A DNA stretch of 64,000 nt. Source: Actinomycetes bacterium (lineage in GTDB: Bacteria; Actinomycetota; Acidimicrobiia; Acidimicrobiales; Microtrichaceae). The stretch is taken from the NCBI GenBank assembly GCA_024222295.1, contig JAAEPF010000017.1:434001-498000 (forward strand), read 5' to 3'. Below are positions 2 through 15,765 of the stretch, one piece after another. Every line of letters begins with the position of its first letter. The stretch's first letter is position 1. The position numbers and the translations under genes are program-made. The notes under the pieces are model-generated. The model made no database searches, had not been told where the DNA came from, and worked only from the letters and a program-made list of their open reading frames with translations.

Positions 2-1042
2 GCCGCTGTGGCGACGGCGACAGAGTTGATGGCGGCGGCCGAACGGCCGGTCGTGGTGGTTGGCCACGGTGCCCGCGATGCGGTCGATCCCGTGCTTCGC
101 CTGGCCGAGCGGCTGGGTGCGCCGGTCTTCACCACGTTCAAGGCAAAGGGCTTGGTCGGCGATGACCATCCGCTCGGCGCGGGAGTGCTCGGTCGGTCTG
201 GGACGCCTGTTGCGAGCTGGCTCATGAACGAGTCGGACCTCGTGATCGCCCTCGGTGTGTCGTTCTCGAACCACACCGGAGTGGCCGACTACAAGGACAT
301 CGTGCAGGTCGACCATGACCCGGCGGCACTGGGACGGTTCCACCCGGTCACCTGTGGGCTGCTCGGCGATGTGGCTGCGACGGTCGGCCAGCTGTGTGAC
401 TCACTCGGAGACGATCTCGCTGCTGTGGACCAGCGAGGCGACCTGGCTCACCGCTGGGGGCTGTGGCGAGCGGAGAAGCAGCGCCGACTCGGCGAAGAGC
501 GTGGTCGGGGCGTCGCTTCGGTGGCCGTGTTCGACGCGCTGGGACGGCACTGTCCCGACGATGCCGTGATCTGTGTCGACGTGGGCAACAACACATACTC
601 GTTCGGCCGCTACTTCGAGTCCTCCGGCGATCAGGCGGTGTTGATGTCGGGCTATCTGGGGTCGATCGGATTCGGCCTGCCCGCAGCGCTGGGGGCGTGG
701 GCTGCGGATCCCGTTCGCCCACTTGTGTCGATCAGCGGCGACGGTGGGTTCGGCCAGTACATGGCCGAGCTGACGACGTTCGTGAAGTACGGGATCCCGG
801 TGCGTCACGTGCTCATCGACAACTCCGAGCTCGGCAAGATCTCCAAGGAGCAGCGTGCTGCCCAACTCGATGTCTGGCAGACCAGCCTCGTGAACCCTGA
901 CTTCGCCGCCTACGCGGAGCTGTGCGGCGCATCCGGGTTCACGGCGCGCACGTCCGGTGAGCTCGACGACGCGCTCGCCGGTGCATTCGCAGCAGACGGT
1001 CCCGCGCTCGTGCACGTGGTTGCCGACGGTGACCTCGTCTGA
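2..1042 (+). CDS. Thiamine-diphosphate-dependent enzyme, C-terminal part (cut by window edge)
   Basis: The reading frame is open to the window edge, so the N-terminal pyrimidine-binding domain lies outside; the GTG at position 8 is an internal codon or at best an accidental start. What is visible is the central domain of the acetolactate synthase/pyruvate oxidase family followed by the pyrophosphate-binding domain. The ThDP signature is seen as GDGGF, with an Asn (in IDNSE) about 28 residues after GDG. The segment KAKGLVGDDHPLGAG is typical of the central domain of PoxB/AlsS-like enzymes. The substrate (pyruvate, oxalyl-CoA, glyoxylate or other 2-oxo acid) cannot be chosen without the N-terminal domain. 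The next gene converges on it after 28 bases. Confidence 0.85.
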   Translation, partial: AAVATATELMAAAERPVVVVGHGARDAVDPVLRLAERLGAPVFTTFKAKGLVGDDHPLGAGVLGRSGTPVASWLMNESDLVIALGVSFSNHTGVADYKDIVQVDHDPAALGRFHPVTCGLLGDVAATVGQLCDSLGDDLAAVDQRGDLAHRWGLWRAEKQRRLGEERGRGVASVAVFDALGRHCPDDAVICVDVGNNTYSFGRYFESSGDQAVLMSGYLGSIGFGLPAALGAWAADPVRPLVSISGDGGFGQYMAELTTFVKYGIPVRHVLIDNSELGKISKEQRAAQLDVWQTSLVNPDFAAYAELCGASGFTARTSGELDDALAGAFAADGPALVHVVADGDLV

Positions 1043-1070
1043 CCTCTGACCAGCCGTCCGGCGTGTCCGT

Positions 1071-1763
1071 TCAGATGGCTGCGCGCAGGCCCTCGGTGAA
1101 GAAGCTGACCGCGTCGTCGACCGAGGAGATGCGGTCGTAGCTGTAGCTGGCACCGAAGGGCTCGGTCCAGAACTCGCCCTCACGGGGCTCCCACGGGCCC
1201 ACATACAGGTAGGGCTCGGCGATGCCGTCGTCGCCGGGGCTGGCGCCGAAGTTGACCTCGGCCATGCTGAACGCGAGGTCGAAGTGTTCGGGCCAGAGCT
1301 GCACGATGGCGGGGGAGCGCTCGGCATTGGCCCGTCTGACCGCCTCCAGCGCCTGCTGCACCAGTGCGTACCAGGCGGCGAGACGCGTAGCGGCGTGCGC
1401 GTCGATGCGCAGCTCGGCGTCCGCGTCGGCGGCAGTGCCGGGTGTGAATACCTGGGTGGGGGCGCCGAGTCGGACCGAGGCCGATTCGGCGGCGGCACCC
1501 AGCGTGGTGAGCGGGTGCCAAGTCTCGTGGTCGCCTTCGAGCACCACCAGCGATGTGCTGTCGACTCTGAGACGCCGGCGAACGCCGCCGACGGAGAACT
1601 CGGGCTGGCCGAACCCGCCAGGTGTGGCCCGCAGGCCGATCCTGCCGGTGTGGTGGTGCAGGTCGGCGGCGAGAACGTGCTCGGCCACCGACTGGAGTGC
1701 GAGTCGGGTGTCGGTGTGGGCTTCGAGGTCGGCGATCCCGAATGGGGAGGTCATGGTGTCCAT
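1071..1763 (-). CDS. Conserved hypothetical protein (DUF5996-like C-terminus)
   Basis: This is a 230-residue soluble protein with no signal peptide or membrane segment. The C-terminal third carries the string LWPEHFDLAF followed by a GASPGDDGIAEPYLYVGPW segment, which recalls the ligand-like end of DUF5996 proteins; that resemblance is from memory and not confirmed. The start ATG encodes MDTMTSPFG; a second ATG three codons later is possible. It is the last of three minus-strand genes (after 2302-3864 and 1812-2246) with gaps of about 50 bases, so it may be co-transcribed with the thioesterase. The function is unknown. Confidence 0.7.
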   Translation of the reverse strand: MDTMTSPFGIADLEAHTDTRLALQSVAEHVLAADLHHHTGRIGLRATPGGFGQPEFSVGGVRRRLRVDSTSLVVLEGDHETWHPLTTLGAAAESASVRLGAPTQVFTPGTAADADAELRIDAHAATRLAAWYALVQQALEAVRRANAERSPAIVQLWPEHFDLAFSMAEVNFGASPGDDGIAEPYLYVGPWEPREGEFWTEPFGASYSYDRISSVDDAVSFFTEGLRAAI

Positions 1764-1811
1764 GGTGCACTGAACACACCGAGTTCGCGAAACATGCCGT
1801 TCGCTCGTGCC

Positions 1812-2246
1812 TCAGACGATGCGGTAGGTCTGCACTGCGTGGGCGATGACCTTGCCGTCCGCGTCGGTGGCGGTGATCTCGGTGAAGGTGAGTTCCTTGC
1901 CGCGCTTCACTGTGGTGGCGTGGCACAGCAGGTCCGACTTCTTCGCGGCCCCCACGTACTGCACGGTCATCGACACGGTCGAGGCCCGGGTGCCCTTGTC
2001 GAAGTCGTGGTTGCTCCAGGTGACCGCTGCGCCTGCGGTGTCTATGACCGTGGCGATCACGCCTCCGTGGTAGAAGATGCCGTCGTTGGTCAGGTCCTCG
2101 CGGAAGGGGAGCCTGATGACAACGTCGTCGGGCTCGTACCTGTCGAACTGGATCCCCATGCCGTTCATGAACGGCGTGCCCATGAAGGTCTTCGGTATCG
2201 CTGCGCGCATTGCGCGTTGGGTTTCCTCGTCGATTCCGTCGCTCAT
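1812..2246 (-). CDS. PaaI-type hot-dog fold thioesterase
   Basis: The 144-residue protein matches the length and layout of PaaI/YbgC-like single hot-dog acyl-CoA thioesterases: the segment GIFYHGGVIATVIDTAGA is the central helix with the HGG motif and the downstream acidic residue (Asp) used as catalytic base. The expected reaction is hydrolysis of acyl- or aryl-CoA esters. The ATG at 2246 is preferred because GAGGCGAGG lies directly upstream and because the residues of the open frame before it are Arg-rich and unlike the family. It sits 55 bases downstream of the DUF169 fusion gene and 48 bases upstream of the hypothetical gene, which suggests one minus-strand unit. Confidence 0.85.
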   Translation of the reverse strand: MSDGIDEETQRAMRAAIPKTFMGTPFMNGMGIQFDRYEPDDVVIRLPFREDLTNDGIFYHGGVIATVIDTAGAAVTWSNHDFDKGTRASTVSMTVQYVGAAKKSDLLCHATTVKRGKELTFTEITATDADGKVIAHAVQTYRIV

Positions 2247-2301
2247 CGCCTCGCCTCTGCTCACGGTCTTGTTGACTCGCCAGTCAGTATTGCCGATCTG
2301 G

Positions 2302-3864
2302 TCACGACGAGTCGTCGTCACCTGCCGAGCCACCCTCGGGATCGGTCGCGGCCTTGCTGTGCAGGGCTTCCAGCCACTGCGGCAGGGATGTGTCGGCGAT
2401 CCTCTGCAGCACGGGACGCATCGTGCGCGCCGCAATGCCGTCGGTCACCTGGCGGAGCGTGACCAGCGTGCCCTCCGGCCGGGCATGCAGGTGGAAGCGG
2501 TACGTCGAGGTGCTGCCCTTGGAACGACCCACGAACTCGAGCACCTCCTCGTGCTCGAAGCGTGACACCTCGGCGCTCACCTTCACCGGGCCTGTCGAGA
2601 AGCGCATCTTGGCTCCGTGGCCGACTTCGTCGCGCATGCGGACGTCGCGGATGTCCGAGTACCAGCTTCCCCACCCCCCAACGTCCGCTATGACCTCCCA
2701 CACCTGGGCTGCATCGGTCGGGATCAGGCGGGTGGCGTGCGAACGCACCCTTCCGGGTCCCAGGTCGTCCTCGTCGGCAGGTTCGTGCACCGTCGCTGCG
2801 AGGTCGGACAGGTCCTCCGCGGCTTCACGCCCGGCCACGTCGCCGACCTCGTCACGATCAGCCAGGGCGGCCTCGGCCTCGTCGTCACCCAACTCGAGGA
2901 CATCCTCGAGACGCATGCCGATGGATTCCATCTGCTTGGCGATCACCTCGACGGTGACGGTGTGGTGGCCGTGTTCGCGTGCGTACTCCTCCATCGTGGG
3001 GCCGGCGAAGTCACGGATCGGCTCCGGTGCCGCCGCCAGCAATTCCAGCGCTTCGGGTTCCCATTCGACGTCTTCACCCGCCGCTGCGCGTGCCTCGCGC
3101 TTGGCTTCGCGCTCGGCGGCGTAGCCGGGCTTGATCGAATCGAGCAGTCCCGTCAGGTCGGGGCGCGAGCCGAGCACCTCGGGCACCATGTGGACCCACC
3201 GCGCCGGGATGATCACGAACATCTCGTGGGGCTTGATCTTGTTGAACATCCGCCCGCCCACGTCGCCGGTGCTGACCACCACGTTGGGTTCGTGCCAGGG
3301 GAGGGCGAAGAGGTCGCCGCACAACGACGTGCCGGCCGCACCCGTCGGAGGCGTGCCGTCGACGGCCACGCGCACTCCGCCGACCATTGCTGCGATCGAG
3401 GGGTCACACACCACCACGACCACGTCGATCGCGACACCAGCGGGCACCTGGTCAAGTGGGCAGGCTCCGATCGCGCGAGCGGTTCCCTGGGGGAGCACGT
3501 TGTTGCCGTTCTTCACAACCCGAGCGCCCTCCTCGGTGAAGAAGTCGGTGTGGGTGGCGAGGTACTTGCCCGAGCTGATCTCGGCCGGCGGCTCGATGAA
3601 CCCAGCCTGCCAGGCACCCGCGAGGCAGGCATGGTGCTCCGCGTCCACGTAGACGTGATGGCCGAAGTCCATGGCCTCGCGCACGATCGCGCACGGCTCG
3701 ACCGGCTTGGCGCCGTACTCGGGCGGGATCTCCGATTCGAACAGCGAGATGGCGACGGGTTCGCCGCGCACGCGTCCGCGGCGCCTGAGTAGGTCTGCCA
3801 CCTCTGCGGTGTCGAATTCGGCGACTGTGTCCAGGCTGAGCCCCATGACCAGCACGTTAGCCAT
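2302..3864 (-). CDS. DUF169 - PCP_red - SRPBCC three-domain fusion protein
   Basis: A 520-residue protein with three recognisable parts. Residues 1-235 look like DUF169 (conserved Cys58 in EPCAIVREA, Cys80 in HHACLAG, and the GNNVLP turn). Residues 267-315 match the short PCP_red module first named from the light-independent protochlorophyllide reductase 57-kDa subunit (WEPEALELL, then IRDFAGPTMEEYARE, then VTVEVI). After an acidic linker (about 318-372), residues 375-505 form an SRPBCC/polyketide-cyclase-like lipid or small-ligand pocket (HATRLIPTDAAQVWEVIADV). The ATG at 3864 starts the family-like sequence; about 62 upstream residues of open frame are antisense to the neighbour. It is divergent from the diiron protein at 3926, with 61 bases between. 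No enzymatic activity is established for this combination. Confidence 0.8.
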   Translation of the reverse strand: MANVLVMGLSLDTVAEFDTAEVADLLRRRGRVRGEPVAISLFESEIPPEYGAKPVEPCAIVREAMDFGHHVYVDAEHHACLAGAWQAGFIEPPAEISSGKYLATHTDFFTEEGARVVKNGNNVLPQGTARAIGACPLDQVPAGVAIDVVVVVCDPSIAAMVGGVRVAVDGTPPTGAAGTSLCGDLFALPWHEPNVVVSTGDVGGRMFNKIKPHEMFVIIPARWVHMVPEVLGSRPDLTGLLDSIKPGYAAEREAKREARAAAGEDVEWEPEALELLAAAPEPIRDFAGPTMEEYAREHGHHTVTVEVIAKQMESIGMRLEDVLELGDDEAEAALADRDEVGDVAGREAAEDLSDLAATVHEPADEDDLGPGRVRSHATRLIPTDAAQVWEVIADVGGWGSWYSDIRDVRMRDEVGHGAKMRFSTGPVKVSAEVSRFEHEEVLEFVGRSKGSTSTYRFHLHARPEGTLVTLRQVTDGIAARTMRPVLQRIADTSLPQWLEALHSKAATDPEGGSAGDDDSS

Positions 3865-3925
3865 ACATCGAGGTGTGCGGGCGAGTCGAGGTGGTGCCCC
3901 TGTATGGTCGTGTCCTCGGGGAACC

Positions 3926-5053
3926 ATGACGACACCGGGGAGTGCCGTGAGAACTGTCAGCGATGCCGAGATCGAGTCGATTGTCGATGCGGGGCGCAGC
4001 CCGACCGGCACCGAGCACGCCGTTGCCGCGACGGCTACCACGGCGTTCACCTGGGACTACGAGAGAAGCCGCGACGGCCTCTCGAAGCTCTATGAGAAGG
4101 CGAAGGCGTCGCAGTGGAACGTGACCACCGACCTGCCATGGGACACCGACGTGGACCAGGAGCGCATGGCGGTCGCGATGGGCGGCAGCGAGTCGTCGCA
4201 GCGCTTCCGCACCAAGGCCGCGGAGTTCTCGCCCGACCTCGCCAAGTGGGGTGACAAGGAGTGGGTCCACCACTCGATCCAGGAGCAGAACTCGATGCTC
4301 TCGCAGTTCCTGCACGGTGAGCAGGGAGCCCTGCTGGTGACGGGCAAGATCGTCGAGACCGTGCCGTGGATCGACGCCAAGTACTACGCCTCGACCCAGG
4401 TCATGGACGAGGCCCGCCATGTCGAGGCGTTCCAGCGCTACCTGGACGAGAAGTTCTCCGAGCACCTGCCGATCAACCCGCATCTCGGCCGGCTGCTCGA
4501 CGACATCGTCATCGACAGCCGCTGGGACATCACCTACCTCGGCATGCAGATCATGGTGGAGGGCCTGGCGCTCGCCGCGTTCGGCTTCATCCACCAGATG
4601 ACCGACGAGCCGCTGCTGAAGAAGATGCTGCGCTACGTGATGAGCGACGAAGCCCGACACGTGGCCTTCGGGGTGCTCACCCTGCAGGAGCTCTACGGCG
4701 AGATGAACGCTGCTGAGATCCGCGAGCGCCAGGAGTTCGCCTACGAGGCGGTCGTGCGCCTGCGAAACCGCTGGTTCCACACCGATGTGTGGGAGCGCGA
4801 AGGCGTCGACCCGCGCCCTCTGGTGCGCTTCATGATGGAGCACCCCACCGAGGAGGAGGACATGTTCCGCAGCCTCCTGTTCTCCAAGATCGTGCCCAAC
4901 TGCAAGAAGCTCGGCCTGCTCGATGCAGGCGATGGCTGGCTACGCGAGCGTTTCGAGGAAGTGGGAATCATCCAGTTCGAGGACTGGGTGGACACCTCGG
5001 CGGAGTACAACGAGCTCGACGAGGTGGCGAAGGACCGCGCCGGAGCCAACTGA
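3926..5053 (+). CDS. Ferritin-like diiron protein (RNR-R2/oxygenase superfamily)
   Basis: The 375-residue protein shows the complete diiron carboxylate set of the ferritin-like superfamily: E132 (HGEQGALL), E162xxH165 (DEARHVEAF), E212 (MVEGLALAAFGF) and E242xxH245 (DEARHVAFG). This predicts an O2-activating di-metal centre in a four-helix bundle, as in R2-like oxidases, AurF or fatty-acid desaturases; the substrate is not evident. Two in-frame starts compete: ATG 3926 behind CGGGGAA, and GTG 3947 behind GGGGAG with five bases spacing. I keep ATG 3926, with GTG 3947 as a real alternative. The gene is divergent from the DUF169 fusion, sharing a 61-base promoter region, which hints at a functional link. 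Confidence 0.85.
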   Translation: MTTPGSAVRTVSDAEIESIVDAGRSPTGTEHAVAATATTAFTWDYERSRDGLSKLYEKAKASQWNVTTDLPWDTDVDQERMAVAMGGSESSQRFRTKAAEFSPDLAKWGDKEWVHHSIQEQNSMLSQFLHGEQGALLVTGKIVETVPWIDAKYYASTQVMDEARHVEAFQRYLDEKFSEHLPINPHLGRLLDDIVIDSRWDITYLGMQIMVEGLALAAFGFIHQMTDEPLLKKMLRYVMSDEARHVAFGVLTLQELYGEMNAAEIRERQEFAYEAVVRLRNRWFHTDVWEREGVDPRPLVRFMMEHPTEEEDMFRSLLFSKIVPNCKKLGLLDAGDGWLRERFEEVGIIQFEDWVDTSAEYNELDEVAKDRAGAN

Positions 5054-5101
5054 TCCTGCCGGGTCACCCTCGACGCAACAGAGGGTTCCTAGGCTGGGCT
5101 G

Positions 5102-5761
5102 ATGGTCCGCACCGCAGAAACCGCCATGCGGCTGGCGGCACGGGCGCTGTCCCAGCCGGACACGCTTGGCGACGCGGACTGCGAGGACCTCCACGGCGGC
5201 CTGATCGGCCAGCCGGTCAACACCGCCACTTCGATCGGCTACGTGGCCGCCGGGGTCTGGCTTCTGGCCCGCACACGGCGGTTGCCTCGCGGCTCCAGGG
5301 GAGTGGCCGGCGCATACGGCGCGTTCGTGGCACTGAGTGGGGCGGGGAGTGTCGCCTACCACGGACCGCAGTTCGCCGGCGCCCAGCTGTTCCATGACCT
5401 TCCGATCGTGGGCATGCTCGGCCTCGGCCTCGGTGTGCCCGTCGTGCGCAGGTTCCGCGGGGTGCCGATGATCGAAGGTGCTCTGGGTCCAAGGGTCTGG
5501 GCGGCAGCGGGATTGGGGGCCGCGGGTGGGCTCGCATTCCTCGCCGGCCGCACAGGCGCTCCGACCTGCGACTCCGGGTCGGTGCTCCAGTTCCACGGCC
5601 TGTGGCACCTGTGCACCGCCGGCGCCGCTGGAGTCTGGGGCACCGTGCTGTGGCCCTTGCCCGATCCGGCGGAGGACCGTTCCTCGCCAGCGGCGTCGGA
5701 AGGTGCCGCTGCCGGTGCGGCTGACGGCGCGGCCGAGGACGAGAGTGGAGGCGGCCGATGA
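5102..5761 (+). CDS. CREST-superfamily (ceramidase-like) membrane hydrolase
   Basis: A 219-residue polytopic membrane protein carrying the scattered metal-hydrolase residues of the CREST superfamily (alkaline ceramidases, PAQR receptors, Per1): C27-E28 near the N-terminus, S83xxxH87 (GSVAYHGP), D99 (FHDLPIVG) and H165xxxH169 (FHGLWHLC). Family members cleave amide or ester bonds of lipids within the membrane with a Zn site. The last 30 residues are an Ala/Gly/Ser/Asp-rich cytosolic tail. The stop overlaps the next start as ATGA at 5758-5761, so translation is coupled to the acyltransferase. The substrate is unknown; assignment rests on the motif spacing, not on a search. Confidence 0.75.
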   Translation: MVRTAETAMRLAARALSQPDTLGDADCEDLHGGLIGQPVNTATSIGYVAAGVWLLARTRRLPRGSRGVAGAYGAFVALSGAGSVAYHGPQFAGAQLFHDLPIVGMLGLGLGVPVVRRFRGVPMIEGALGPRVWAAAGLGAAGGLAFLAGRTGAPTCDSGSVLQFHGLWHLCTAGAAGVWGTVLWPLPDPAEDRSSPAASEGAAAGAADGAAEDESGGGR

Positions 5762-7125
5762 AGTCGCACGTCGGTTCCTGGACCGACCACCCGGTCCAGC
5801 TGCGACTGATCGACGCCATTGCGGCGGTCACGTGGCGTGAGGTGGCAGCCGGCGACCTGGCTCCGACGGAGGACGGGCCGGTGCTGCTGGTGTCCAACCA
5901 CTTCGGTGGGGCGGCCGACGCCATCGTGTTGATGTCGGTGCTGCCGCGACGGCCGCGGATCCTGGCCGACGACACCATCTGGCGTTACCCGGTGGCCCGG
6001 CAGGTCATGTCGTGGCTGGGCGCGATCCCCGTGCACCGGGGTCGTTCGCGATCCGGCGGCGAGGCGAAGTCGGGCGCCGACAACACGGACATGTTCTCTT
6101 CCTGCCACGACGCCCTCCGAGAGGGCGACACGCTGTTGATCTTTCCGGAGGGCATCACCCGTGAGGAGCCGAGCATCGGTGAGGTGAAGACCGGAGCGGC
6201 GCGCATAGCGCTCGGCGCGCGGGAGTCGGGCGTCGAGGGCATCAGCATCGTGCCGGTGGGAATCCACTACGACGACAAGGCGGCGTTCCGCAGCTCGGTG
6301 TACGTGCGCCGCGGCGACCCACTGGACCTGGATGCCCTGGTTGAGGGGTACCGTCCCGACCTCGAGATCGGCGACGAGCGTGCGGCTGTGGACGAGCTGA
6401 CCGAGTTGATCGAAGCGCGGCTGCGGGCTTCGGCGCCCAACTACGAGGACTGGCGTGAGGCCAGGGCCCTGCAGACCGCTGCCGAGGTCTTCATGCGCTC
6501 GATGGCACCCGACCGTTCCGTTCCGATCGGCCTGCGTGACCGGCTGGCGTCGTGGCTCGCAGCTCGCGAGGACCACGGGGAGATCGAGGACTACGCAGCC
6601 GACTACCGCGACGCCCTCGCCCACTCGGGGCTCGCCGACGGCTGGGCGGTGGAAGGGGCCGGCGGGCTGCGCTGGCGCAGCGTGCTCACGGTGCTCACGT
6701 GGGTCCTGATGCTGCCTTACGCGGCACTCGGACTCGTTGCGCACGCCGTGCCGATGGCCCTCACCTGGCTGGTCACCAAGCTGCGGCTGGCCCCGGCGAT
6801 GATGGCGACGGTCATGCCGGTGGCAGCGGCGGTGCTGTTCGGCATCGCGATGTGCCTGTGGACGTGGGTGGGGTGGCGCATCGACGGTGCCGATGGTGCG
6901 TTCTCACTGGCGTTGCTGTTCCCGATCTCGTTCTCGGCGCTGATCCTCGTGGCCGAGCGGGCGGCACTGTGGTGGCGCGGCCTGCGCAACAGGCTCTGGG
7001 GTGCCCGCCGCGGCCGCCGCGTCGGGCTCAGGTCGGACCGCGACCAGTTGGTCTCGATGGTCGGAGCAGAAGTGTCGGCCGCGCTCGGCGCCGCCGCGGG
7101 CAGTCCGGGCGGAACTGCTGGATGA
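5758..7125 (+). CDS. PlsC-like lysophospholipid acyltransferase with C-terminal membrane segments
   Basis: Residues about 40-230 form a PlsC/LPLAT domain: motif I is NHFGGAAD (H48, D54, an HX5D spacing seen in the NHPNGLLD-type branch), motif III is FPEGITREEPS with the following KTGAARIA, and IVPVGIHY is motif IV. The expected reaction is transfer of an acyl group from acyl-CoA or acyl-ACP to a lysolipid or glycerol phosphate. Residues about 300-420 add four predicted hydrophobic helices, unlike the compact 240-residue PlsC enzymes, giving 455 residues. It overlaps the upstream CREST gene by 4 bases and the downstream gene by 4 bases, so all three are probably made together at the membrane. 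Confidence 0.88.
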   Translation: MKSHVGSWTDHPVQLRLIDAIAAVTWREVAAGDLAPTEDGPVLLVSNHFGGAADAIVLMSVLPRRPRILADDTIWRYPVARQVMSWLGAIPVHRGRSRSGGEAKSGADNTDMFSSCHDALREGDTLLIFPEGITREEPSIGEVKTGAARIALGARESGVEGISIVPVGIHYDDKAAFRSSVYVRRGDPLDLDALVEGYRPDLEIGDERAAVDELTELIEARLRASAPNYEDWREARALQTAAEVFMRSMAPDRSVPIGLRDRLASWLAAREDHGEIEDYAADYRDALAHSGLADGWAVEGAGGLRWRSVLTVLTWVLMLPYAALGLVAHAVPMALTWLVTKLRLAPAMMATVMPVAAAVLFGIAMCLWTWVGWRIDGADGAFSLALLFPISFSALILVAERAALWWRGLRNRLWGARRGRRVGLRSDRDQLVSMVGAEVSAALGAAAGSPGGTAG

Positions 7126-7451
7126 GCATGGAGGATGCGATCGGGATCCTTGTGTTCCTGCCTGCGATCGCGGTCTGGGTCATGGCGGTGGTGGATGTGG
7201 CGACCCGCAAGGACATCGGCCGCGGACGCCGGACACTCACCGCCATCGTGATAGCGCTCGTGTTCCCGCTCACCCTGCTCTACCTGCTTGCGCGGCCTCC
7301 GTCCACCGTCAGGCGTGGCCCGGAGAGCGCCGGTGATCCGCGACGCGACCTGGTGCGCCGACTCGAGACGGGCGAAGCGTCGCCGCGTGACGAGGAGTGG
7401 GGGCACTGGGTGGACCTGGCGGTCGAGGGGAAGGTACCCCGCACGCGTTGA
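7122..7451 (+). CDS. Small PLDc_N-like membrane protein
   Basis: A 109-residue protein with two hydrophobic helices (IGILVFLPAIAVWVMAVVDV and LTAIVIALVFPLTLLYLLAR) joined by a short basic loop. The pattern (Trp, V-D, basic turn, FP, LYLLARP) is that of the PLDc_N domain that precedes cardiolipin synthases, here without the phospholipase D part. The C-terminal 50 residues are charged and cytosolic. The ATG overlaps the acyltransferase stop (ATGA, 7122-7125), making it the third member of the coupled cassette. It may act as an accessory or assembly protein for the lipid enzymes; that role is inference. Confidence 0.75.
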   Translation: MSMEDAIGILVFLPAIAVWVMAVVDVATRKDIGRGRRTLTAIVIALVFPLTLLYLLARPPSTVRRGPESAGDPRRDLVRRLETGEASPRDEEWGHWVDLAVEGKVPRTR

Positions 7452-7478
7452 ACGCGCGCCCGGCCACGGCCGGTGAAG

Positions 7479-8147
7479 TCAGACCGTAGCGATTCCCTTG
7501 CCGATCAGCACCGCACCGATGATCAGGAAGATCACCGCCACCACAGCGGCGTTGTTGTCGAACAGCCAGACCCTCCAGCCCTTGAGCAGCGCTTCGGAGC
7601 GCGAGCCCATGGCCACCGCAACCACGAGGGGAGCGAGCACGCCGAGTGTGGCGAACACGGCATAGGCGATGACCACGCCGACCTCCTGGCCGACCGGCAG
7701 CGCTGCCTCGGCGATCGCCACGCCCGCGGCGAGGCCGACGATGATGTTCTTGGGGTTGAGCGCCCCGATTCCCAGACCGACCACCAACGATCTCGGCGGG
7801 CTGAACGCCTCGATGCCCGACATCCATCGCGGGGTCTCGGCCTCTCCCGGTGCAGGCCGGTTGCGGAACCGGCGGATGCCGCCGAACACAAGCGCTGCGC
7901 CCAGCACGATCTTCAGCCATGAAGTCCAGCCGGCCGAGTCGCCGGAAGTGCCTACGTCGGTCGTGGTGGCGAGCAGTGTGAACAGGCCGAGCGCCGCTCC
8001 CACGCCGAGTAGGAACCCGGTCACGTAGGCCGCCGCATTGGGCTTCGGCTTGTCGGAGAACAGCAGCAGGATCTCGGCTGCAATGGGCAGCGGTGAGATG
8101 AGCACCGCAAGTGCCAGGGGCAGGACCTCGCCGATCACCTGGTTCAT
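7479..8147 (-). CDS. GAP-family (Sap/LysE-like) polytopic membrane protein
   Basis: The protein is 222 residues with about six hydrophobic segments, a central loop rich in Arg and Pro, and the motif LNPKN following a glycine-rich helix. This matches GAP-family proteins (the mycobacterial Sap glycopeptidolipid/sulfolipid-addressing group, LysE superfamily). The role would be export or addressing of a small lipid or metabolite. The ATG at 8147 (MNQVIGEV) is chosen over an upstream ATG (MQKRGP) because AGAGAGG lies five bases before it. It is divergent from the acyl-CoA dehydrogenase at 8272; the 124-base gap contains three inverted repeats. Confidence 0.8.
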   Translation of the reverse strand: MNQVIGEVLPLALAVLISPLPIAAEILLLFSDKPKPNAAAYVTGFLLGVGAALGLFTLLATTTDVGTSGDSAGWTSWLKIVLGAALVFGGIRRFRNRPAPGEAETPRWMSGIEAFSPPRSLVVGLGIGALNPKNIIVGLAAGVAIAEAALPVGQEVGVVIAYAVFATLGVLAPLVVAVAMGSRSEALLKGWRVWLFDNNAAVVAVIFLIIGAVLIGKGIATV

Positions 8148-8161
8148 CGGGCCTCTCTTCT

Positions 8162-8207
8162 GCACACTTGCCGGTGTGCGCTAGTGACTGCTGTCACGGT
8201 AGTACCG
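8162..8207. promoter_or_regulatory. Three stacked inverted repeats in a divergent promoter region
   Basis: Between the GAP-family gene and the acyl-CoA dehydrogenase lie three perfect short inverted repeats in series: GCACAC-6-GTGTGC (8162-8179), GTGAC-4-GTCAC (8184-8197) and CGGTA-1-TACCG (8197-8207). The geometry suggests binding sites for one or more dimeric repressors. No regulator gene is adjacent, so any TetR- or GntR-type assignment would be a guess. Confidence 0.4.
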
Positions 8208-8271
8208 CTGCGCTTGCCGCCCGGCCCTGTCCAATGCAGACTCACTGTCATTACCAGGGGGTAACTTACCG

Positions 8272-9630
8272 ATGACTGACAGCACGACCACAGGCTTGAC
8301 CGGCGACGCGGCGGGCACCGACATGGCTCGCGGCGACCTGATCGAAGAGGTCCGCACCTGGCTCGAGGACAACTGGGATCCCGACCTCACCGTGGCGCAA
8401 TGGTGGGAGAAGCTCGGCACGGCCGGTTGGTCCGCTCCCAACCTCCCCGCCGACTCCTACGGCCGCGGGCTGTCACGCAGCGACGGCGTGAAGGTCGCCC
8501 GCGAGATCGGGTCCTTCGGTGCGCTCGGTGCTCCGTCCGGCCTGGGCCTGCTGCTCGCAGCGCCCACGATCACCACGCACGGCAGCCGCGAGCAGATAGA
8601 CACATACGTGCGAGACATCGTGACCGGGCAGAAGGCCTGGTGTCAGCTGTTCTCCGAGCCCGGGGCCGGCTCCGACCTGGCGGGGCTAACCTGCAAGGCC
8701 GAAAAGGACGGCGAGGAGTGGATCATCAACGGCCAGAAGGTGTGGACCTCACTCGGCCAGTCGGCCGACCTGGGCATGCTGTTGGCCCGCACCGCTCCCG
8801 ACGCCCCCAAGCACCGCGGCATCACCTGGATGGCAATCGACATGCACCAACCGGGCGTCGAGCTGCGCCCGCTGCGCGAGCTCACCGGGCACGCGATGTT
8901 CAACGAGGTGTTCCTGAGCGACGCACGGGTGCCCGACGCAGCGATCATCGGTGACCTCAACAACGGCTGGGCTGCTGCCAACACCACGCTCGCCAATGAG
9001 CGTGCCGGCCTCGGTGCCGGTGGAGGCGGAGCCGCCGCGACGGCGGTGCCGGGAACCGTCTCAGGCAACCTCGACAAGCGCGTGGGTGACTTCGTCAAGG
9101 AGAAGCCCAAGAAGAAGTCGACCGCTCCGGCCGACTCCAAGCCGCACAGGCGCCAGTCGAGCGCACAGCTCTACATCGACCTGGCCAAGGGAAATGGCAA
9201 GGTCGACGATCCCACGATCCGCCAGGACCTGGTGCGCCTGCACATCATCGGCGAGCTCGGTCGCATCGGTGCAGAGCGGGTGAAGGCCGCCAAGGCCAAC
9301 GGCAGCGACATTCCCGGCATGGCCAACATCCAGAAGCTCTCGATGAGCGACATGGTGCGGCTCCAACGTGACCTCGGACTGCGCATCGTCGGGCCGGCGG
9401 GCACGCTGCACGCCTACAAGCCCGAGGATCGTGCCGCGATCGACCAGGCCACCGGCAACCCCTTCCTGGCGATGGTCACCGGCGCGGCGCTGTACGCACA
9501 GGCGCCCCCGATCTACGGCGGCACCGACCAGATCCAGAAGAACATCATCGGTGAGCGGGTCCTGGGCCTGCCCAAGGAGCCGGGAGACATCAACACGGTG
9601 CCGTTCTCGTCTCTGCCCAAGAACGCCTGA
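8272..9630 (+). CDS. Acyl-CoA dehydrogenase with a basic inserted segment
   Basis: A 452-residue flavoprotein of the acyl-CoA dehydrogenase family, catalysing FAD-linked alpha,beta-oxidation of acyl-CoA. The signatures are FSEPGAGSDLAGL (FAD/substrate contact in the beta domain), NGQKVWTS, and YGGTDQIQKNIIGERVLGLP at the C-terminus. The YEGT glutamate used as base by medium-chain enzymes is Gly here (YGGT), as in many actinobacterial FadE proteins that supply the base elsewhere. Between the beta and alpha domains (roughly residues 245-300) sits a Gly/Ala run followed by a Lys/Arg-rich stretch (VKEKPKKKS, KPHRR), lengthening the protein by about 50 residues. The start ATG 8272 follows a GGGGG tract 12 bases upstream. 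Confidence 0.9.
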   Translation: MTDSTTTGLTGDAAGTDMARGDLIEEVRTWLEDNWDPDLTVAQWWEKLGTAGWSAPNLPADSYGRGLSRSDGVKVAREIGSFGALGAPSGLGLLLAAPTITTHGSREQIDTYVRDIVTGQKAWCQLFSEPGAGSDLAGLTCKAEKDGEEWIINGQKVWTSLGQSADLGMLLARTAPDAPKHRGITWMAIDMHQPGVELRPLRELTGHAMFNEVFLSDARVPDAAIIGDLNNGWAAANTTLANERAGLGAGGGGAAATAVPGTVSGNLDKRVGDFVKEKPKKKSTAPADSKPHRRQSSAQLYIDLAKGNGKVDDPTIRQDLVRLHIIGELGRIGAERVKAAKANGSDIPGMANIQKLSMSDMVRLQRDLGLRIVGPAGTLHAYKPEDRAAIDQATGNPFLAMVTGAALYAQAPPIYGGTDQIQKNIIGERVLGLPKEPGDINTVPFSSLPKNA

Positions 9631-9689
9631 TCAGCCACAGCCGCTCCCGAGGGGCCGAACTCGTCGTTTCGGCGGCCGGCGGTGGGCGT

Positions 9690-10499
9690 TCAGCGCTCGG
9701 CCAGACCCTGCAGGTAGCGGTTCGCTGCCTCGCGGGACTCCTCATCGTGCAGCGCTGTGACCAGCGTGTCCGCTTCCATCCAGCCGCGCCCCTGTCCGGT
9801 CATCTGTGACGTGGTGGCGTTTATGTGGGCCTTCGTCGACAGCAATGGAAGCGCCGCCTTGCCCGCCAACTGGGTGACCAGGGCTTCGACCGCCACGTCG
9901 AGGTCGGGCTCCGGAACCACGCGCTGCACGAATCCGATCTCGCGGGCCTCGACAGGGTCGAAGCGCCGGCAGGTCATGACAAGGTCCCGTGTGGCTGCCG
10001 CGCCGATCTCGCGGATCAACCGCGGTATGCCACCCCACGCGAGTGGGATGCCCAGGTCGATCTCGGGGATCGAGAAGCTGGCGTCATCGGCCGCGATGCG
10101 GAAGTCGCAAGCCGAGGCGATGACCACGCCTCCGCCGATGCAGTGACCCTGGATGCGGGCCACCGTGATAGCGGCCATGGCCTCGAGCGCGTCGGCCGCT
10201 CTCCGGCCGGCGTCGGCCCGGTCGCGCGCTGTCAGCCCGTCACCGGGGTCCGTCACGAACCCCGCTACATCCGCGCCTGCGGAGAACGAGCTGCCTTCAC
10301 CCCACAGCACGACGACCTTCAGCCCGCGCTGGGTGTCGAACCACCGGGCGGCCGCCTCGATTCCGAACAGGACGTCGGTCGACAAGGCGTTCAGCTTGTC
10401 CGGCCTGTTGAGCACCAAGCTGCCCACGGGACCGTCTGCCGACACGCGGAGCCCCGGCCCCAGGTCTGGCGGATGGGCGTCATGCGATGGGTCTGCCAT
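9690..10499 (-). CDS. Enoyl-CoA hydratase/isomerase family protein
   Basis: The 269-residue protein is a crotonase-fold enzyme. It shows the first oxyanion-hole segment FSAGADVAGF and the second HCIGGGVVIASACDFRIA, followed by FSIPEIDLGIPLAWGG, where the acid/base Glu of the hydratases would be expected (the Glu in IPEIDLG). The probable activity is hydration or isomerisation of an enoyl-CoA in beta-oxidation or a branched route. The start ATG at 10499 gives MADPSHDAHPPD, a slightly long N-terminus. It converges on the upstream acyl-CoA dehydrogenase with 59 bases between, so it is separately transcribed. Confidence 0.9.
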   Translation of the reverse strand: MADPSHDAHPPDLGPGLRVSADGPVGSLVLNRPDKLNALSTDVLFGIEAAARWFDTQRGLKVVVLWGEGSSFSAGADVAGFVTDPGDGLTARDRADAGRRAADALEAMAAITVARIQGHCIGGGVVIASACDFRIAADDASFSIPEIDLGIPLAWGGIPRLIREIGAAATRDLVMTCRRFDPVEAREIGFVQRVVPEPDLDVAVEALVTQLAGKAALPLLSTKAHINATTSQMTGQGRGWMEADTLVTALHDEESREAANRYLQGLAER

Positions 10500-10660
10500 G
10501 GCGGCAACCTAGAGGATTCCGCTGCTGAGGAGAGGCCGTGGAGCCGGGCGATTGGGTTGGCCGGGTGTCGGCTCCGGCGAAGCGCCACTCGCACCGGTCG
10601 GCTGACGACGACCGTCCACATCCGGCTCATCCCCCTCAGGGGGCTGGCTAGCGTCGGGCC
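10500..10660. other. Divergent intergenic region with a small GC hairpin
   Basis: This 161-base gap separates the divergent enoyl-CoA hydratase and dienelactone hydrolase genes and must contain both promoters. The only structure I see is CCCCC-TCA-GGGGG at 10631-10643, in the leader of the plus-strand gene. No convincing promoter hexamers or regulator site can be read. Confidence 0.3.
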
Positions 10661-11473
10661 ATGGCCGACGACCCGCTGGACGACTTCGAGAAGACCACCT
10701 TCACCCACGGGGGCAAGACCCGCGATGTGTACCGCCTGGGCGAGGGACCGGCCGTGATCGTCATGGCCGAGATCCCTGGCATCACCCCGAAGGTGGCTGA
10801 CTTTGCCCGCAAGGTGGCTGGCATCGGGTGCACCGCGGTGCTGCCCCACCTCTTCGGTGATCCGGGCCGGGATCCCGACTCCCGCGGCCGGCTGGGCAGC
10901 CTGTCGATGATCGCGAGGTCGATGGGGCCGTCGTGCGTGAGCCGCGACTTCACGGTGTGGGCGACCGGCAGGAGTTCGCCCGTCATCGACTGGCTCCGGG
11001 CACTGGCAGCCGATGAGCACGAGAAGTGCGGCGGCCCGGGCGTGGGCGCGATCGGCATGTGTTTCACCGGCGGCTTCGCCCTGGCGATGGCCACCGATGA
11101 CCGTCTGCTGGCTCCCGTGCTCTCACAGCCGTCGCTACCGTTCGGTGCCGGCAGGTCGCGTGCCCGCAACATCGACATCTCGCCCGAGGAGCTGGAAGTG
11201 GTCAAGGGGCGCTGCGCGGCCGAAGGGCTAACGGTGCTCGGCATGCGTTTCAGCAGTGACCGACTGGTGCCCGGTGCTCGATTCGAGTTCCTGCGCGAAC
11301 ACCTCGGCGACGCGTTCGTCGCGATAGAGCTCGACGACGAGGCCGCCAATCCCGATTCGGCGATGCCGCCGCACTCGGTGGTCACCGAGCACCTGATCGA
11401 CGAGCCGGGTGAGCCCACCCGCGAAGCCCTCGAGCAGGTCCTCGAGCTGTTCAGGGAGAGGCTGCTCACCTGA
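10661..11473 (+). CDS. Dienelactone hydrolase family protein
   Basis: A 270-residue alpha/beta hydrolase with the Cys nucleophile elbow GMCFTGG (C134), characteristic of dienelactone hydrolases rather than serine esterases. D200 (SSDRLVPG) and one of the histidines H238/H244 (PHSVVTEHL) complete the probable triad. Such enzymes open enol-lactones in chloro- or hydroxy-aromatic degradation; many actinobacterial relatives act on other small esters. It begins at an ATG 34 bases after the small hairpin and stands alone, followed 56 bases later by the secreted esterase. No aromatic ring-cleavage genes are nearby, so the physiological substrate is open. Confidence 0.85.
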   Translation: MADDPLDDFEKTTFTHGGKTRDVYRLGEGPAVIVMAEIPGITPKVADFARKVAGIGCTAVLPHLFGDPGRDPDSRGRLGSLSMIARSMGPSCVSRDFTVWATGRSSPVIDWLRALAADEHEKCGGPGVGAIGMCFTGGFALAMATDDRLLAPVLSQPSLPFGAGRSRARNIDISPEELEVVKGRCAAEGLTVLGMRFSSDRLVPGARFEFLREHLGDAFVAIELDDEAANPDSAMPPHSVVTEHLIDEPGEPTREALEQVLELFRERLLT

Positions 11474-11529
11474 ACCTGCCTCCGACACTCTCGCTGAACG
11501 CGGTCTTGGGTGCCGGATAGGGTGCGCGG

Positions 11530-12666
11530 ATGCTCCCATGGCCTGCACAGACGCAAGCACTGTCATCAACTCGCGCGTCATGGCGTCCACTAGCGGTTCT
11601 GTTTGTCGCCGCCTCCCTGTTCACCGGCGCCTGTTCCACCGAGTCGGGCGACGGCGAAGCGAACGCCGCGGAGGCTGAATCCGACCCATCCGGCCAGGAT
11701 GCCAATGGGTCGGCTGACCAGGGCAACGCCGAGGGGTCCTCGGCCGCCCCGACCGCTGTTGCTTCCGCCGGATGCGAAACGCCAGGGGCGCCGGCGGCCA
11801 CGTTGGCGAAGGAAGGGATCGACTCCGATGGCCAGCGGCGCTGGTGGCTTCTCACAGCACCCGAGGCAGCGACCGGCTCGGATCCGGTTCCGCTGGTGCT
11901 CGACTTCCACGGACTGTCCGAGGGAGCCGAGTTCCACTCCGGGTCGACCGGTTGGAGTGAGCTCGCCGAACGGGAGGGTTTCGTGGTGGCCTTCCCGCAA
12001 GGGTCGGGGCGCAGCGTCGGCTGGGATGTGCGTTCGTCGGGGCCCAATCCCGACCTCGACTTCGTCGACTCGATGCTCGCTGACATCGAGGCCCGCTACT
12101 GCATAGACACCTCGCGGGTCTACTCCACCGGCCTGTCCAACGGCGCGTTCCTTTCCTCGGTACTGGCATGCACGCGCCCGGATGTGTTTGCCGCCGTCGG
12201 CCCGGTGGCCGGTGTCACCTACCCGCCCGACTGCGATCCAGGCAAGGCCGTGCCCGTGATCTCCTTCCACGGCACCGCGGACCCACTCCTGCCCTTCAAC
12301 GGCTCCGTGGCGGCCGACGCGCTCTCGTCCATCACCTCGGGGGGCAGCGGCAGCACCACCTCGGCCCCGCCGGGTGACATCGATGGCGACGGCTACCCCG
12401 CGAACGCGGCCGATTGGGCCGCCAACAACGGCTGCGGCCAGCCCACGGACGAGCAGGTTGCAGGATCGGTCGTGCGCAGGAGCTATGACTGCCCCGACGG
12501 GGCCGAGGTCGTCTTCTACATGATCCAGGACGGCGGCCATACGTGGCCCGGGTCCGACGCACTCACCGCAGAGGGCATCGCCCGCATCGTGGGACCGACC
12601 AACATGGAGATCGACGCCACCGAACTCACCTGGGAGTTCTTTGCACGCCACCAGCTGGCGGCCTGA
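11530..12666 (+). CDS. Secreted PHB-depolymerase/LpqC-type esterase
   Basis: A 378-residue exported hydrolase. The N-terminus has a basic stretch, a hydrophobic run (LAVLFVAASLFTGAC) ending in a possible lipobox Cys35, then a Ser/Gly/Asp/Ala-rich linker to about residue 80. The catalytic domain resembles feruloyl esterase/poly(3-hydroxybutyrate) depolymerase (LpqC): D125-F-H-G oxyanion strand (LDFHGLS), nucleophile S203 (GLSNGAF), D251 (HGTADPLLPF) and H337 (DGGHTWPG). A DIDGDGY calcium-loop-like insertion lies near residue 283, within a Cys-containing segment. It probably cleaves polyester, polysaccharide esters or other extracellular esters. Confidence 0.85.
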   Translation: MLPWPAQTQALSSTRASWRPLAVLFVAASLFTGACSTESGDGEANAAEAESDPSGQDANGSADQGNAEGSSAAPTAVASAGCETPGAPAATLAKEGIDSDGQRRWWLLTAPEAATGSDPVPLVLDFHGLSEGAEFHSGSTGWSELAEREGFVVAFPQGSGRSVGWDVRSSGPNPDLDFVDSMLADIEARYCIDTSRVYSTGLSNGAFLSSVLACTRPDVFAAVGPVAGVTYPPDCDPGKAVPVISFHGTADPLLPFNGSVAADALSSITSGGSGSTTSAPPGDIDGDGYPANAADWAANNGCGQPTDEQVAGSVVRRSYDCPDGAEVVFYMIQDGGHTWPGSDALTAEGIARIVGPTNMEIDATELTWEFFARHQLAA

Positions 12667-12684
12667 GCTGTGGGGTTCTGCCGC

Positions 12685-13446
12685 TCAGCGTGCGAAGAGG
12701 AGCTGGAACTCGACGGTCCCTTCATCGGACACGGACAGCACCACCGGTGCCGTCGGGGCCTCCACGCCGAAGTCCGAGAAGACGATCGGGATGGATCCGA
12801 TCACCACCGGTGTGCCGTCCACCAACTGGGCCTCGAGCGCCACGGTGACAGCGTTGGTGACGCCGTGGATCGTGAGGTCGCCCGTCGCGTCCACACTCAC
12901 AGCGTCACCCTCCGCAGCCCCCGGCCCGAGGTCGATGGGCTCCGTCAGCACGAACGTGGCGGTCGGGAACTGCTCGGTCTCCAGTGCGTCCTGCACCCGT
13001 GAGTCGCGGCGGCTCTGGTCAGTGACGATCTGGGTGAGGTCGACCTCGAGGTCGGCAGACTCGAGGGTGTTGCCGGTGATCGTGATCGACCCGGTCACAT
13101 CGTCGGTGCGGCCGACCGCCGTGGTCGCGCCGATGCTGGCCAGTTCCTCCTCGACGCGGAATCCCGCGAACGACCCGGTCGCCGTCTCGAGGTTGAAGTC
13201 GCCGGACTCGTTGTCGACTACCCACGTGCCTTCGATCCCTGCAGGGGCAGCCTGCGTGGTGTCGGTACTCCCGGTGCCGGCGCCATCGCCTCCGTCGGCC
13301 GTGGTGCTGGTCAGCTGCTCGGTTGCAGCCTCGAGGTTGACCGCCTCCGGCGCATCGTCGCGCAGGTAGAAGTACCAAACGCCCACAGCCAGAAGCGCAA
13401 CGATGACCACCGCGGCCGCGATGATGCCCTTCGTACGGTTCGTCAT
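12685..13446 (-). CDS. Membrane-anchored YceI family protein
   Basis: 253 residues: a short basic cytosolic start (MTNRTKG), one transmembrane helix (about 8-27), an acidic Thr/Gly-rich linker, then a YceI-type lipocalin-like beta barrel from about residue 70 (GTWVVDNESGDFNLETATGSFAGFRVEEEL, described here only as its first strand region). Typical YceI strands such as SRRDSRVQDALETEQFPTA and LTIHGVTNAV are present. YceI proteins bind isoprenoid-like lipids. The ATG at 13446 is the natural start; the longer frame overlaps the PhzF gene. It lies 17 bases after the PhzF stop, last in a patatin-PhzF-YceI minus-strand series. Confidence 0.88.
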   Translation of the reverse strand: MTNRTKGIIAAAVVIVALLAVGVWYFYLRDDAPEAVNLEAATEQLTSTTADGGDGAGTGSTDTTQAAPAGIEGTWVVDNESGDFNLETATGSFAGFRVEEELASIGATTAVGRTDDVTGSITITGNTLESADLEVDLTQIVTDQSRRDSRVQDALETEQFPTATFVLTEPIDLGPGAAEGDAVSVDATGDLTIHGVTNAVTVALEAQLVDGTPVVIGSIPIVFSDFGVEAPTAPVVLSVSDEGTVEFQLLFAR

Positions 13447-13463
13447 CCCACGATTGTGGCTGA

Positions 13464-14270: not shown

Positions 14271-14319
14271 GCAGCGATCCTGCCGCAAGTCCCACGGTCG
14301 CGCCTGTCGGTTTCGGGCC

Positions 14320-15726: not shown

Positions 15727-15765
15727 GGCACCATCATGGCGACAGTCGGCCGGAAACGTGGGGAC

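What the first reader, a model, noticed from the sequence alone, without database searches (positions are those of the whole stretch)
2302..3864. DUF169-PCP_red-SRPBCC fusion beside a diiron protein
One protein joins DUF169 (conserved Cys residues), the short PCP_red module known from light-independent protochlorophyllide reduction proteins, and an SRPBCC lipid/ligand pocket. It is divergent, at 61 bases, from a ferritin-like protein with a complete diiron site. No photosynthesis genes are present. Seen directly: motif order and spacing; known: the domain names; inferred: the two genes form a small oxidative or lipid-handling unit. Function of the combination is, to my knowledge, undescribed.
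Basis: partly seen in the sequence, partly recalled or inferred. Interest (0 to 1): 0.62.

Follow-up and report, generated by a model that had tools for sequence, protein, structure and literature searches.

The report
Chlorophyll-linked DUF169 fusion in a non-phototroph
A bacterium in which no chlorophyll-reductase iron-protein gene was found carries a three-part protein whose first part is close to an unstudied gene inside the bacteriochlorophyll operon of green filamentous bacteria, which hints at an overlooked tetrapyrrole-handling protein family; the neighbouring diiron gene is probably unrelated.

Summary
The fusion is real: DUF169 (27-225), a PCP_red-like module (268-308) and a Polyketide_cyc2/SRPBCC domain (374-491). 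A unit with the diiron gene is not supported: that family matches in 55 of 61 relatives, the fusion in this genome only, and at 12 relatives' diiron loci no other window gene tested matched.

Its DUF169 belongs to a well-supported clade with motif DAxHHxC. Nearest are two-domain DUF169-PCP_red proteins (five, in 4 of 158 genomes of a Myxococcota-type phylum; 42-46% identity), which end where the SRPBCC tail begins here. Next are DUF169-only proteins in 8 of 201 Chloroflexota; 7 of the 8 lie among bacteriochlorophyll genes (six directly after bchX), the eighth at a contig end. In Chloroflexus aurantiacus it is by position the gene skipped between bchX (Caur_0417) and bchI (Caur_0419). The window's genome shows no NifH/BchL/BchX-type protein.

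Best explanation (0.4): a soluble protein that binds or hands over a chlorin-type tetrapyrrole or its metal, reused outside photosynthesis. Shown: homology, gene linkage, conserved Cys/His. Inferred: ligand and activity. Rival: a generic redox/docking protein, as PCP_red also occurs with Usp-rubredoxin. The three-domain form was found in no other genome searched.

The parts
2302..3864 (-). Fusion protein P0001, 520 aa (DUF169 - PCP_red - SRPBCC); start codon uncertain
3190..3786 (-). DUF169 domain (residues 27-225), DAxHHxC clade
   Evidence: Pfam 107 bits; tree; AF2 pLDDT 89.0, pTM 0.87 for residues 1-245
3625..3636 (-). H77-H78-A79-C80 of the clade motif (HHDC in the 13 others); with C58 and C182 the candidate ligand site
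   Evidence: C80 and C182 also invariant, C58 nearly so, in a 36-row DUF169 alignment
2941..3063 (-). PCP_red-like module (residues 268-308)
   Evidence: 32.9 bits in six frames, 27.5 bits in the protein, 27.1 bits with an independent small profile
2887..2940 (-). Residues 309-326, matching the C-terminus of the two-domain DUF169-PCP_red relatives (QM...GM.L)
2752..2886 (-). Acidic linker (about residues 327-371), absent from the two-domain relatives
   Evidence: coding-like GC pattern
2392..2745 (-). Polyketide_cyc2 / SRPBCC domain (residues 374-491)
   Evidence: Pfam 36.8 bits, cut-off 27.4
1812..2246 (-). Hotdog-fold thioesterase, same strand, about 55 bases downstream; possible operon partner (scanned as 1812-2249)
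   Evidence: 4HBT 45.4 bits, TIGR00369; gap read; operon is inference
1071..1763 (-). 230-aa protein without a family over a cut-off, same strand, 48 bases further
3926..5053 (+). Divergent ferritin-like diiron protein, 375 aa; probably independent of the fusion
   Evidence: weak AurF and R2lox-type matches; family in 55 of 61 relatives

Best explanation
P0001 is a non-photosynthetic member of a DUF169 clade tied to bacteriochlorophyll synthesis. Most likely it is a soluble tetrapyrrole-handling protein: the DUF169 domain holds the ligand or its metal with the conserved C58, H77-H78-x-C80 and C182; the PCP_red module, which elsewhere forms the tail of the DPOR subunit BchB, clamps or docks the macrocycle; and the added SRPBCC pocket stores or hands over a hydrophobic ligand. 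Shown: domain make-up, the clade, its linkage to bch genes in Chloroflexota, conserved residues, and that SRPBCC follows a complete DUF169-PCP_red protein. Inferred: that the ligand is a chlorin or related tetrapyrrole, that the residues bind it or a metal, and that the role is carrier or chaperone rather than enzyme.
For: Tree of 84 DUF169 rows: P0001, 5 DUF169-PCP_red and 8 Chloroflexota rows form one clade (100/99), with P0001 beside the PCP_red fusions (100/97). 45 columns are invariant over 14 rows, among them C58, H77, H78, C80, C182, R205. Among 264 held loci the motif DAxHHxCxxG was seen only in loci from the genomes of this clade. In Chloroflexota 7 of 8 loci are among bch genes: L208-L211 bchF-bchC-bchX-DUF169-bchI-bchD (families assigned on L210; the other three by homology); L212 and L213 bchX-DUF169-bchY-bchZ; L214 bchC-bchX...bchY-bchZ-x-DUF169 (bchC of L212 scores just under its cut-off, bchC and bchX of L214 are by homology). 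Three gene orders, so not one frozen order. Five of the 8 genomes were searched for NifH-class genes: 4 hit at that bchX, and the fifth (G835) has a hit of like score elsewhere. G916:C1 is 5258541 bases, the size of C. aurantiacus J-10-fl; its gene table names bchF 0415, bchC 0416, bchX 0417, bchI 0419, bchD 0420 and does not list 0418. 3 of the 4 genomes with DUF169-PCP_red also have a nitrogenase-like reductase whose BchB-like subunit carries PCP_red.
Against: The window's genome shows no BchL/BchX/NifH-type protein, so the ligand cannot be assumed to be a chlorophyll precursor, and nearby genes look like acyl-lipid metabolism. P0001 departs from columns fixed in all 13 others at 52, 79 (HHDC is HHAC), 82, 86 and 135. 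PCP_red is not chlorophyll-specific, and its score here is near or under the curated cut-off. The fourth genome with DUF169-PCP_red, G1069, lacks a full NifH-class gene (best 46.8 bits). The DUF169-PCP_red genes had no bch gene among the neighbours scanned (in; not every neighbour was scanned). No PDB structure matched the DUF169 model clearly, so the ligand site is unproven. P0001 and the clade's stem are long branches.
Confidence: 0.4

Rival explanations
1. Generic redox or metal-stress protein: PCP_red is a small docking module for electron-transfer partners, DUF169 carries a metal or redox-active cysteines, SRPBCC senses a hydrophobic signal; no tetrapyrrole is involved in this organism.
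For: PCP_red occurs with Usp plus a rubredoxin-like domain (L050), 12 times in one Nitrospirota MAG, and, weakly, at the end of flavin-reductase-like proteins (L099-L101: PCP_red 16.8-21.4 bits, under the cut-off; flavin reductase 19.8-30 bits, one of three over it). Some DUF169 stand behind a ferredoxin-like Cys-rich segment (L109, read by eye). A Desulfovibrio DUF169 gene appears in a nitrate-fitness table (PMC4001038, one passage).
Against: The specific clade of P0001 is linked to bchX/bchC in Chloroflexota, which a generic stress role does not explain.
Confidence: 0.3
2. Scavenging or turnover of chlorophyll breakdown products taken from the environment: the protein binds pheophorbide-like chlorins in a heterotroph.
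For: Clade link to chlorin synthesis in a genome without a recognisable DPOR/COR iron protein; pocket domain fused to DUF169 only here among the genomes searched.
Against: No uptake or chlorin-cleavage gene among the 17 window proteins scanned in the first 21 kb; not searched elsewhere in the genome.
Confidence: 0.12
3. One reading: fusion and diiron protein work together in oxidation or lipid handling.
For: Divergent starts 61 bases apart; lipid-type genes around.
Against: Diiron family in 55 of 61 relatives, the fusion in none of them but the own genome; at 12 diiron loci no other window gene tested matched.
Confidence: 0.1
4. A decaying horizontally acquired gene without function.
For: Singleton in the samples; changes at otherwise fixed sites.
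Against: Intact 520-aa frame with native-like codon usage (score 0.356 among 0.257-0.480 for 12 neighbours) and 45 invariant columns kept.
Confidence: 0.08

Closest known systems
Two-domain DUF169-PCP_red proteins in four genomes of a Myxococcota-type phylum (G1069, G1131, G1102, G1032)
   Same: DUF169 of the same clade plus PCP_red plus the short C-terminal QM...GM.L tail; 42-46% identity, within residues 9-324; PCP_red 22.4-33.9 bits in the five, one over the cut-off
   Different: No SRPBCC; each is followed by a second, divergent DUF169 gene (5 of 5 loci)
DUF169 gene between bchX and bchI in Chloroflexus aurantiacus (by position Caur_0418) and its Chloroflexota orthologues
   Same: Same clade, DAxHHxC, C58 and C182; 42% identity over 216 residues
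   Different: No PCP_red, no SRPBCC; lies among bacteriochlorophyll genes
BchB/ChlB, catalytic subunit of light-independent protochlorophyllide reductase (DPOR)
   Same: Homologous PCP_red tail
   Different: P0001 has no nitrogenase-type (PF00148) domain
Other DUF169 (PF02596, COG2043) proteins of Actinomycetota, Dehalococcoidia and archaea
   Same: Same family; C80 and C182 (and nearly always C58) conserved
   Different: 20-25% identical in the alignment; no DAxHHxC in the loci held
Polyketide_cyc2 / SRPBCC ligand-pocket proteins
   Same: C-terminal domain
   Different: Elsewhere in the order and in the own genome not fused to DUF169

Membership tests
DUF169 (PF02596) | Score over Pfam's gathering cut-off (27 bits) | tested here: met
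   107.1 bits
DUF169 DAxHHxC clade | Groups with the Chloroflexota bch-linked DUF169 and the DUF169-PCP_red rows | tested here: met
   support 100/99; sister of the PCP_red fusions 100/97; P0001 is a long branch (0.83)
DUF169 DAxHHxC clade | Complete HHDC plus H86 | tested here: not met
   P0001 has A79 and Q86 where all 13 others have D and H; H77, H78, C80 kept
PCP_red (PF08369) | Score over cut-off (32.5 bits) | tested here: inconclusive
   27.5 bits as protein, 32.9 bits in the six-frame search
BchB (DPOR subunit B) | Nitrogenase-type Oxidored_nitro domain and full-length BchB score | tested here: not met
   no PF00148 at E 0.1; TIGR01278 26.4 bits against cut-off 490
SRPBCC (Polyketide_cyc2, PF10604) | Score over cut-off (27.4 bits) | tested here: met
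   36.8 bits
SRPBCC (Polyketide_cyc2, PF10604) | Helix-grip pocket in a confident model | tested here: inconclusive
   block means of pLDDT in that part are 24-66
Bacteriochlorophyll biosynthesis protein | Lies with other bch genes, in a genome with the pathway's reductases | tested here: not met
   no NifH/BchL/BchX-type gene in G000, no bch gene among the 17 window proteins scanned; the linkage is met for 7 of 8 Chloroflexota orthologues
Tetrapyrrole-binding protein | Binds a tetrapyrrole in vitro | not testable with these tools
   needs purified protein

The most novel reading that the evidence does not exclude
The DAxHHxC DUF169 clade is an unrecognised tetrapyrrole-handling family: in phototrophic Chloroflexota (by position Caur_0418, and orthologues) it is an undescribed component of bacteriochlorophyll synthesis near the chlorophyllide reductase step, and in other lineages it was fused first to PCP_red and then, in the window's genome, to a ligand-pocket domain to carry or modify another tetrapyrrole.
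Probability: 0.3. Interest if true: 0.78.

Novelty: new variant of a known kind. Interest (0 to 1): 0.52.

Why it matters
DUF169 has no assigned function that I could find (search listings, passages). Linking one clade of it to the bch genes of Chloroflexota, and to the DPOR-type PCP_red module by fusion, gives a concrete, testable hypothesis: a missing helper or enzyme of bacteriochlorophyll synthesis in green filamentous phototrophs, and tetrapyrrole chemistry in bacteria not known to make chlorophyll.

Tried and rejected
Rejected: diiron pair as a functional unit. Assembly accident or chance frame: coding-like GC in all segments and relatives aligned up to residue 324. BchB remnant: no nitrogenase domain. 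BciC (chlorophyllide demethoxycarbonylase): not tested by sequence; judged unlikely because the DUF169 gene is also in G964, whose contig length I recall as that of Roseiflexus RS-1 (a passage says that R. castenholzii lacks chlorosomes), while BciC serves BChl c synthesis (passages) and is named as a protein of its own in C. aurantiacus.

Led nowhere: plasmid tblastn (no match); genome-contig scan with P0001 alone (98 pattern stretches, no relative; the patterns are exact 8-residue words, so only near copies would be found); Nitrospirota sample (2 of 148, PCP_red stretch only); promoter scan of 900-5300 (none; shuffles give 0.3); PDB comparisons of the DUF169 model (no clear match; absence shows nothing) and of the full-length model (none at E 0.001 or better). 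Other Actinomycetota DUF169: one search listed matches in 52 of 396 genomes; I held the 30 loci that call returned and fetched 20 regions more; apart from the window's genome none is of the clade by tblastn or motif; the remaining matches were not looked at. Coordinates of models were not available, so Cys/His distances could not be measured.

Controls: the home-made PCP_red profile contained the window's and L099's own stretches, so its finds there prove nothing. Rebuilt without these two it still finds the window protein, L099-L101 and all five DUF169-PCP_red proteins (17.0-30.9 bits), and none of the 43 DUF169 loci; it also gives weak hits (16.7-22.1 bits) to the BchZ genes of L212-L214.

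Rows dropped: from the tree, loci that were copies of others, frames under 200 aa and identical sequences; L026 and L035 did not pass the HMM cut-off. Gene calls in fetched loci came from a simple home-made caller, which missed the DUF169 gene in L208 and L212; these were found with the HMM. The motif print had left out loci from L178 on; one search repeats it over all 264 loci.

Full report
Observation. The frame 2302-3864 on the minus strand encodes 520 aa. Pfam finds DUF169 at 27-225 (107 bits), PCP_red at 268-308 (27.5 bits as a protein, under the cut-off of 32.5; 32.9 bits in the six-frame genome search, over it) and Polyketide_cyc2, an SRPBCC family, at 374-491 (36.8 bits). NCBIfam matches residues 252-316 to the C-terminus of BchB. 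All segments, linkers too, have a coding-like GC pattern by codon position, and codon usage is like that of the neighbours. The start is uncertain. The divergent gene at 3926-5053 is a ferritin-like protein with Glu and ExxH motifs of a diiron site.

The pair. The diiron family matches in 55 of 61 relatives (51 at E below 1e-40, the other four only weakly), the fusion in one, the window's genome; two other genomes match only in the SRPBCC part. In the class sample 4 of 395 genomes match and in the order sample 3 of 158; apart from the window's genome these are matches to the SRPBCC part, one of them to residues 306-444 (the samples overlap). At the 12 relatives' diiron loci that I fetched, no other of the 13 window genes used as queries matched; one of these queries was out of frame and five loci are under 12 kb. 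The pair is therefore not a conserved unit. On its own strand the fusion is followed by a hotdog thioesterase and a 230-aa protein with gaps of about 55 and 48 bases, a possible operon that I could not test in relatives.

Relatives of the DUF169 half. DUF169 occurs in 52 of 396 genomes of the phylum; those of its matches that I held as loci are, the own genome apart, at best about 28% identical to P0001 by tblastn and lack its HHxC motif. A pattern scan of named genomes gave 43 DUF169 loci, none with PCP_red in the fetched stretch. Searches round other centres were informative. In the phylum of a MAG that the tree tool labels Myxococcota, 9 of 158 genomes matched, and 4 of them encode five proteins of 324-339 aa aligned to P0001 within residues 9-324 at 42-46% identity: DUF169 plus PCP_red. 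PCP_red scores 24.8, 22.4, 30.3, 33.9 and 27.7 bits in the five, always at the same place, one over the cut-off. In Chloroflexota 13 of 201 matched, and 8 of these have DUF169 of 33-41% identity without PCP_red.

Tree and residues. Among 84 DUF169 rows these 14 form one clade (100/99), P0001 being the sister of the five DUF169-PCP_red rows (100/97); P0001 and the clade's stem are long. Invariant in all 14 are C58, D74, H77, H78, C80, C182, the GxxGGR of 200-205 and others, 45 columns in all; P0001 departs at 52, 79, 82, 86 and 135 where the 13 others agree. The two-domain proteins end at the point where residue ~326 of P0001 leads into an acidic linker and the SRPBCC domain. The simplest history is one DUF169-PCP_red fusion and a later C-terminal addition of SRPBCC; this is inference.

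Gene linkage. In L210 the order is methyltransferase, bchF, bchC, bchX, DUF169, bchI, bchD, with homologous genes in the same order in L208, L209 and L211 (the DUF169 coordinates of L208 are). In L212 and L213 the gene stands between bchX and bchY-bchZ, in L214 after bchY-bchZ. The eighth locus, L215, begins at a contig end. G916 has the exact size of the C. aurantiacus J-10-fl genome. The published table names bchF Caur_0415, bchC 0416, bchX 0417, bchI 0419 and bchD 0420 and does not list 0418 (PMC3150298, passages); a proteome paper calls bchI-1 and bchD-1 part of the operon of bchF, bchC and bchX (PMC9316378, passage). That the DUF169 gene is Caur_0418 follows from its position. 'Caur_0418' is in no held paper.

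Own genome. G000 has five PF00142 matches, the best 32.1 bits, a background that E. coli and the other controls show as well, hence no NifH/BchL/BchX-type protein, and only one PCP_red. Three of the four DUF169-PCP_red genomes (G1131, G1102, G1032) have two NifH-class genes each, beside one plain nitrogenase-component-1 gene and one that also carries PCP_red; in G1032 a bilin-reductase-like gene follows; G1069 has no full NifH-class gene.

PCP_red is not proof of chlorophyll. In the phylum 43 of 396 genomes match (40 over the cut-off), 38 of them in one family, where I read, by eye, BchB-like proteins and, by Pfam, a Usp-PCP_red-rubredoxin-like protein. It also occurs, under the cut-off, in flavin-reductase-like proteins and 12 times in a Nitrospirota MAG.

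Structure. Residues 1-245 with 35 relatives: pLDDT 89.0, pTM 0.87. Foldseek found no PDB match at E 0.001 or better, and VIA-align none at Z 5 or more among the 853 chains compared. The full-length model is weak outside DUF169, so domain packing is unknown.

Mechanism. I favour a tetrapyrrole-handling protein (0.4): the clade's setting among bch genes points to chlorins, and invariant Cys/His suggest a metal or metallo-tetrapyrrole site. What it handles in a genome without DPOR/COR iron proteins is open. A generic redox or docking role is the main rival (0.3).

Literature. Searches for DUF169 (16 papers listed), PCP_red (4, unrelated by title), PF08369 (1), COG2043 (1) and Caur_0418 (0) gave no functional study as far as the listings and the passages read show.

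Noticed in passing
L238:2714-9962, L237:5408-11576, L239:923-6244 (genomes G1032, G1131, G1102): Nitrogenase-like cluster: two NifH-class proteins, one Oxidored_nitro protein and one with Oxidored_nitro plus PCP_red (BchB-like, 178 bits against a cut-off of 490 in G1032); a MarR regulator in G1032 and G1131, and in G1032 an NmrA-type and a ferredoxin-dependent bilin reductase-like gene. Looks like an undescribed nitrogenase-like tetrapyrrole reductase.
   Followed up: partly
L037-L060 (one Actinomycetota family, f49): 38 genomes of one family carry up to five PCP_red matches each: BchB-like proteins (by eye), a Usp-PCP_red-rubredoxin-like protein (L050) and very short stand-alone PCP_red frames.
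   Followed up: partly
L099:2085-2933, L100:3458-4369, L101:2738-3607: Flavin-reductase-like proteins with a PCP_red-like C-terminus, under the PCP_red cut-off, in family f42.
   Followed up: partly
L203:8616-9383, L204:10205-10912, L205:690-1376, L206:1468-2154, L207:10373-11062: A second, divergent DUF169 gene directly follows each DUF169-PCP_red gene (5 of 5 loci).
   Followed up: no
L216:9162-9503: Short frame (114 aa) of the same DUF169 clade in G1102, a genome that also has a full-length one.
   Followed up: no
G795 (Nitrospirota MAG, L166, L168-L177): Twelve reported PCP_red matches in one genome, several within one frame.
   Followed up: no
window 5758-16581: Neighbourhood with acyl-lipid genes: acyltransferase, SfLAP/Sap-type membrane protein, acyl-CoA dehydrogenase, enoyl-CoA hydratase, patatin.
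   Followed up: no
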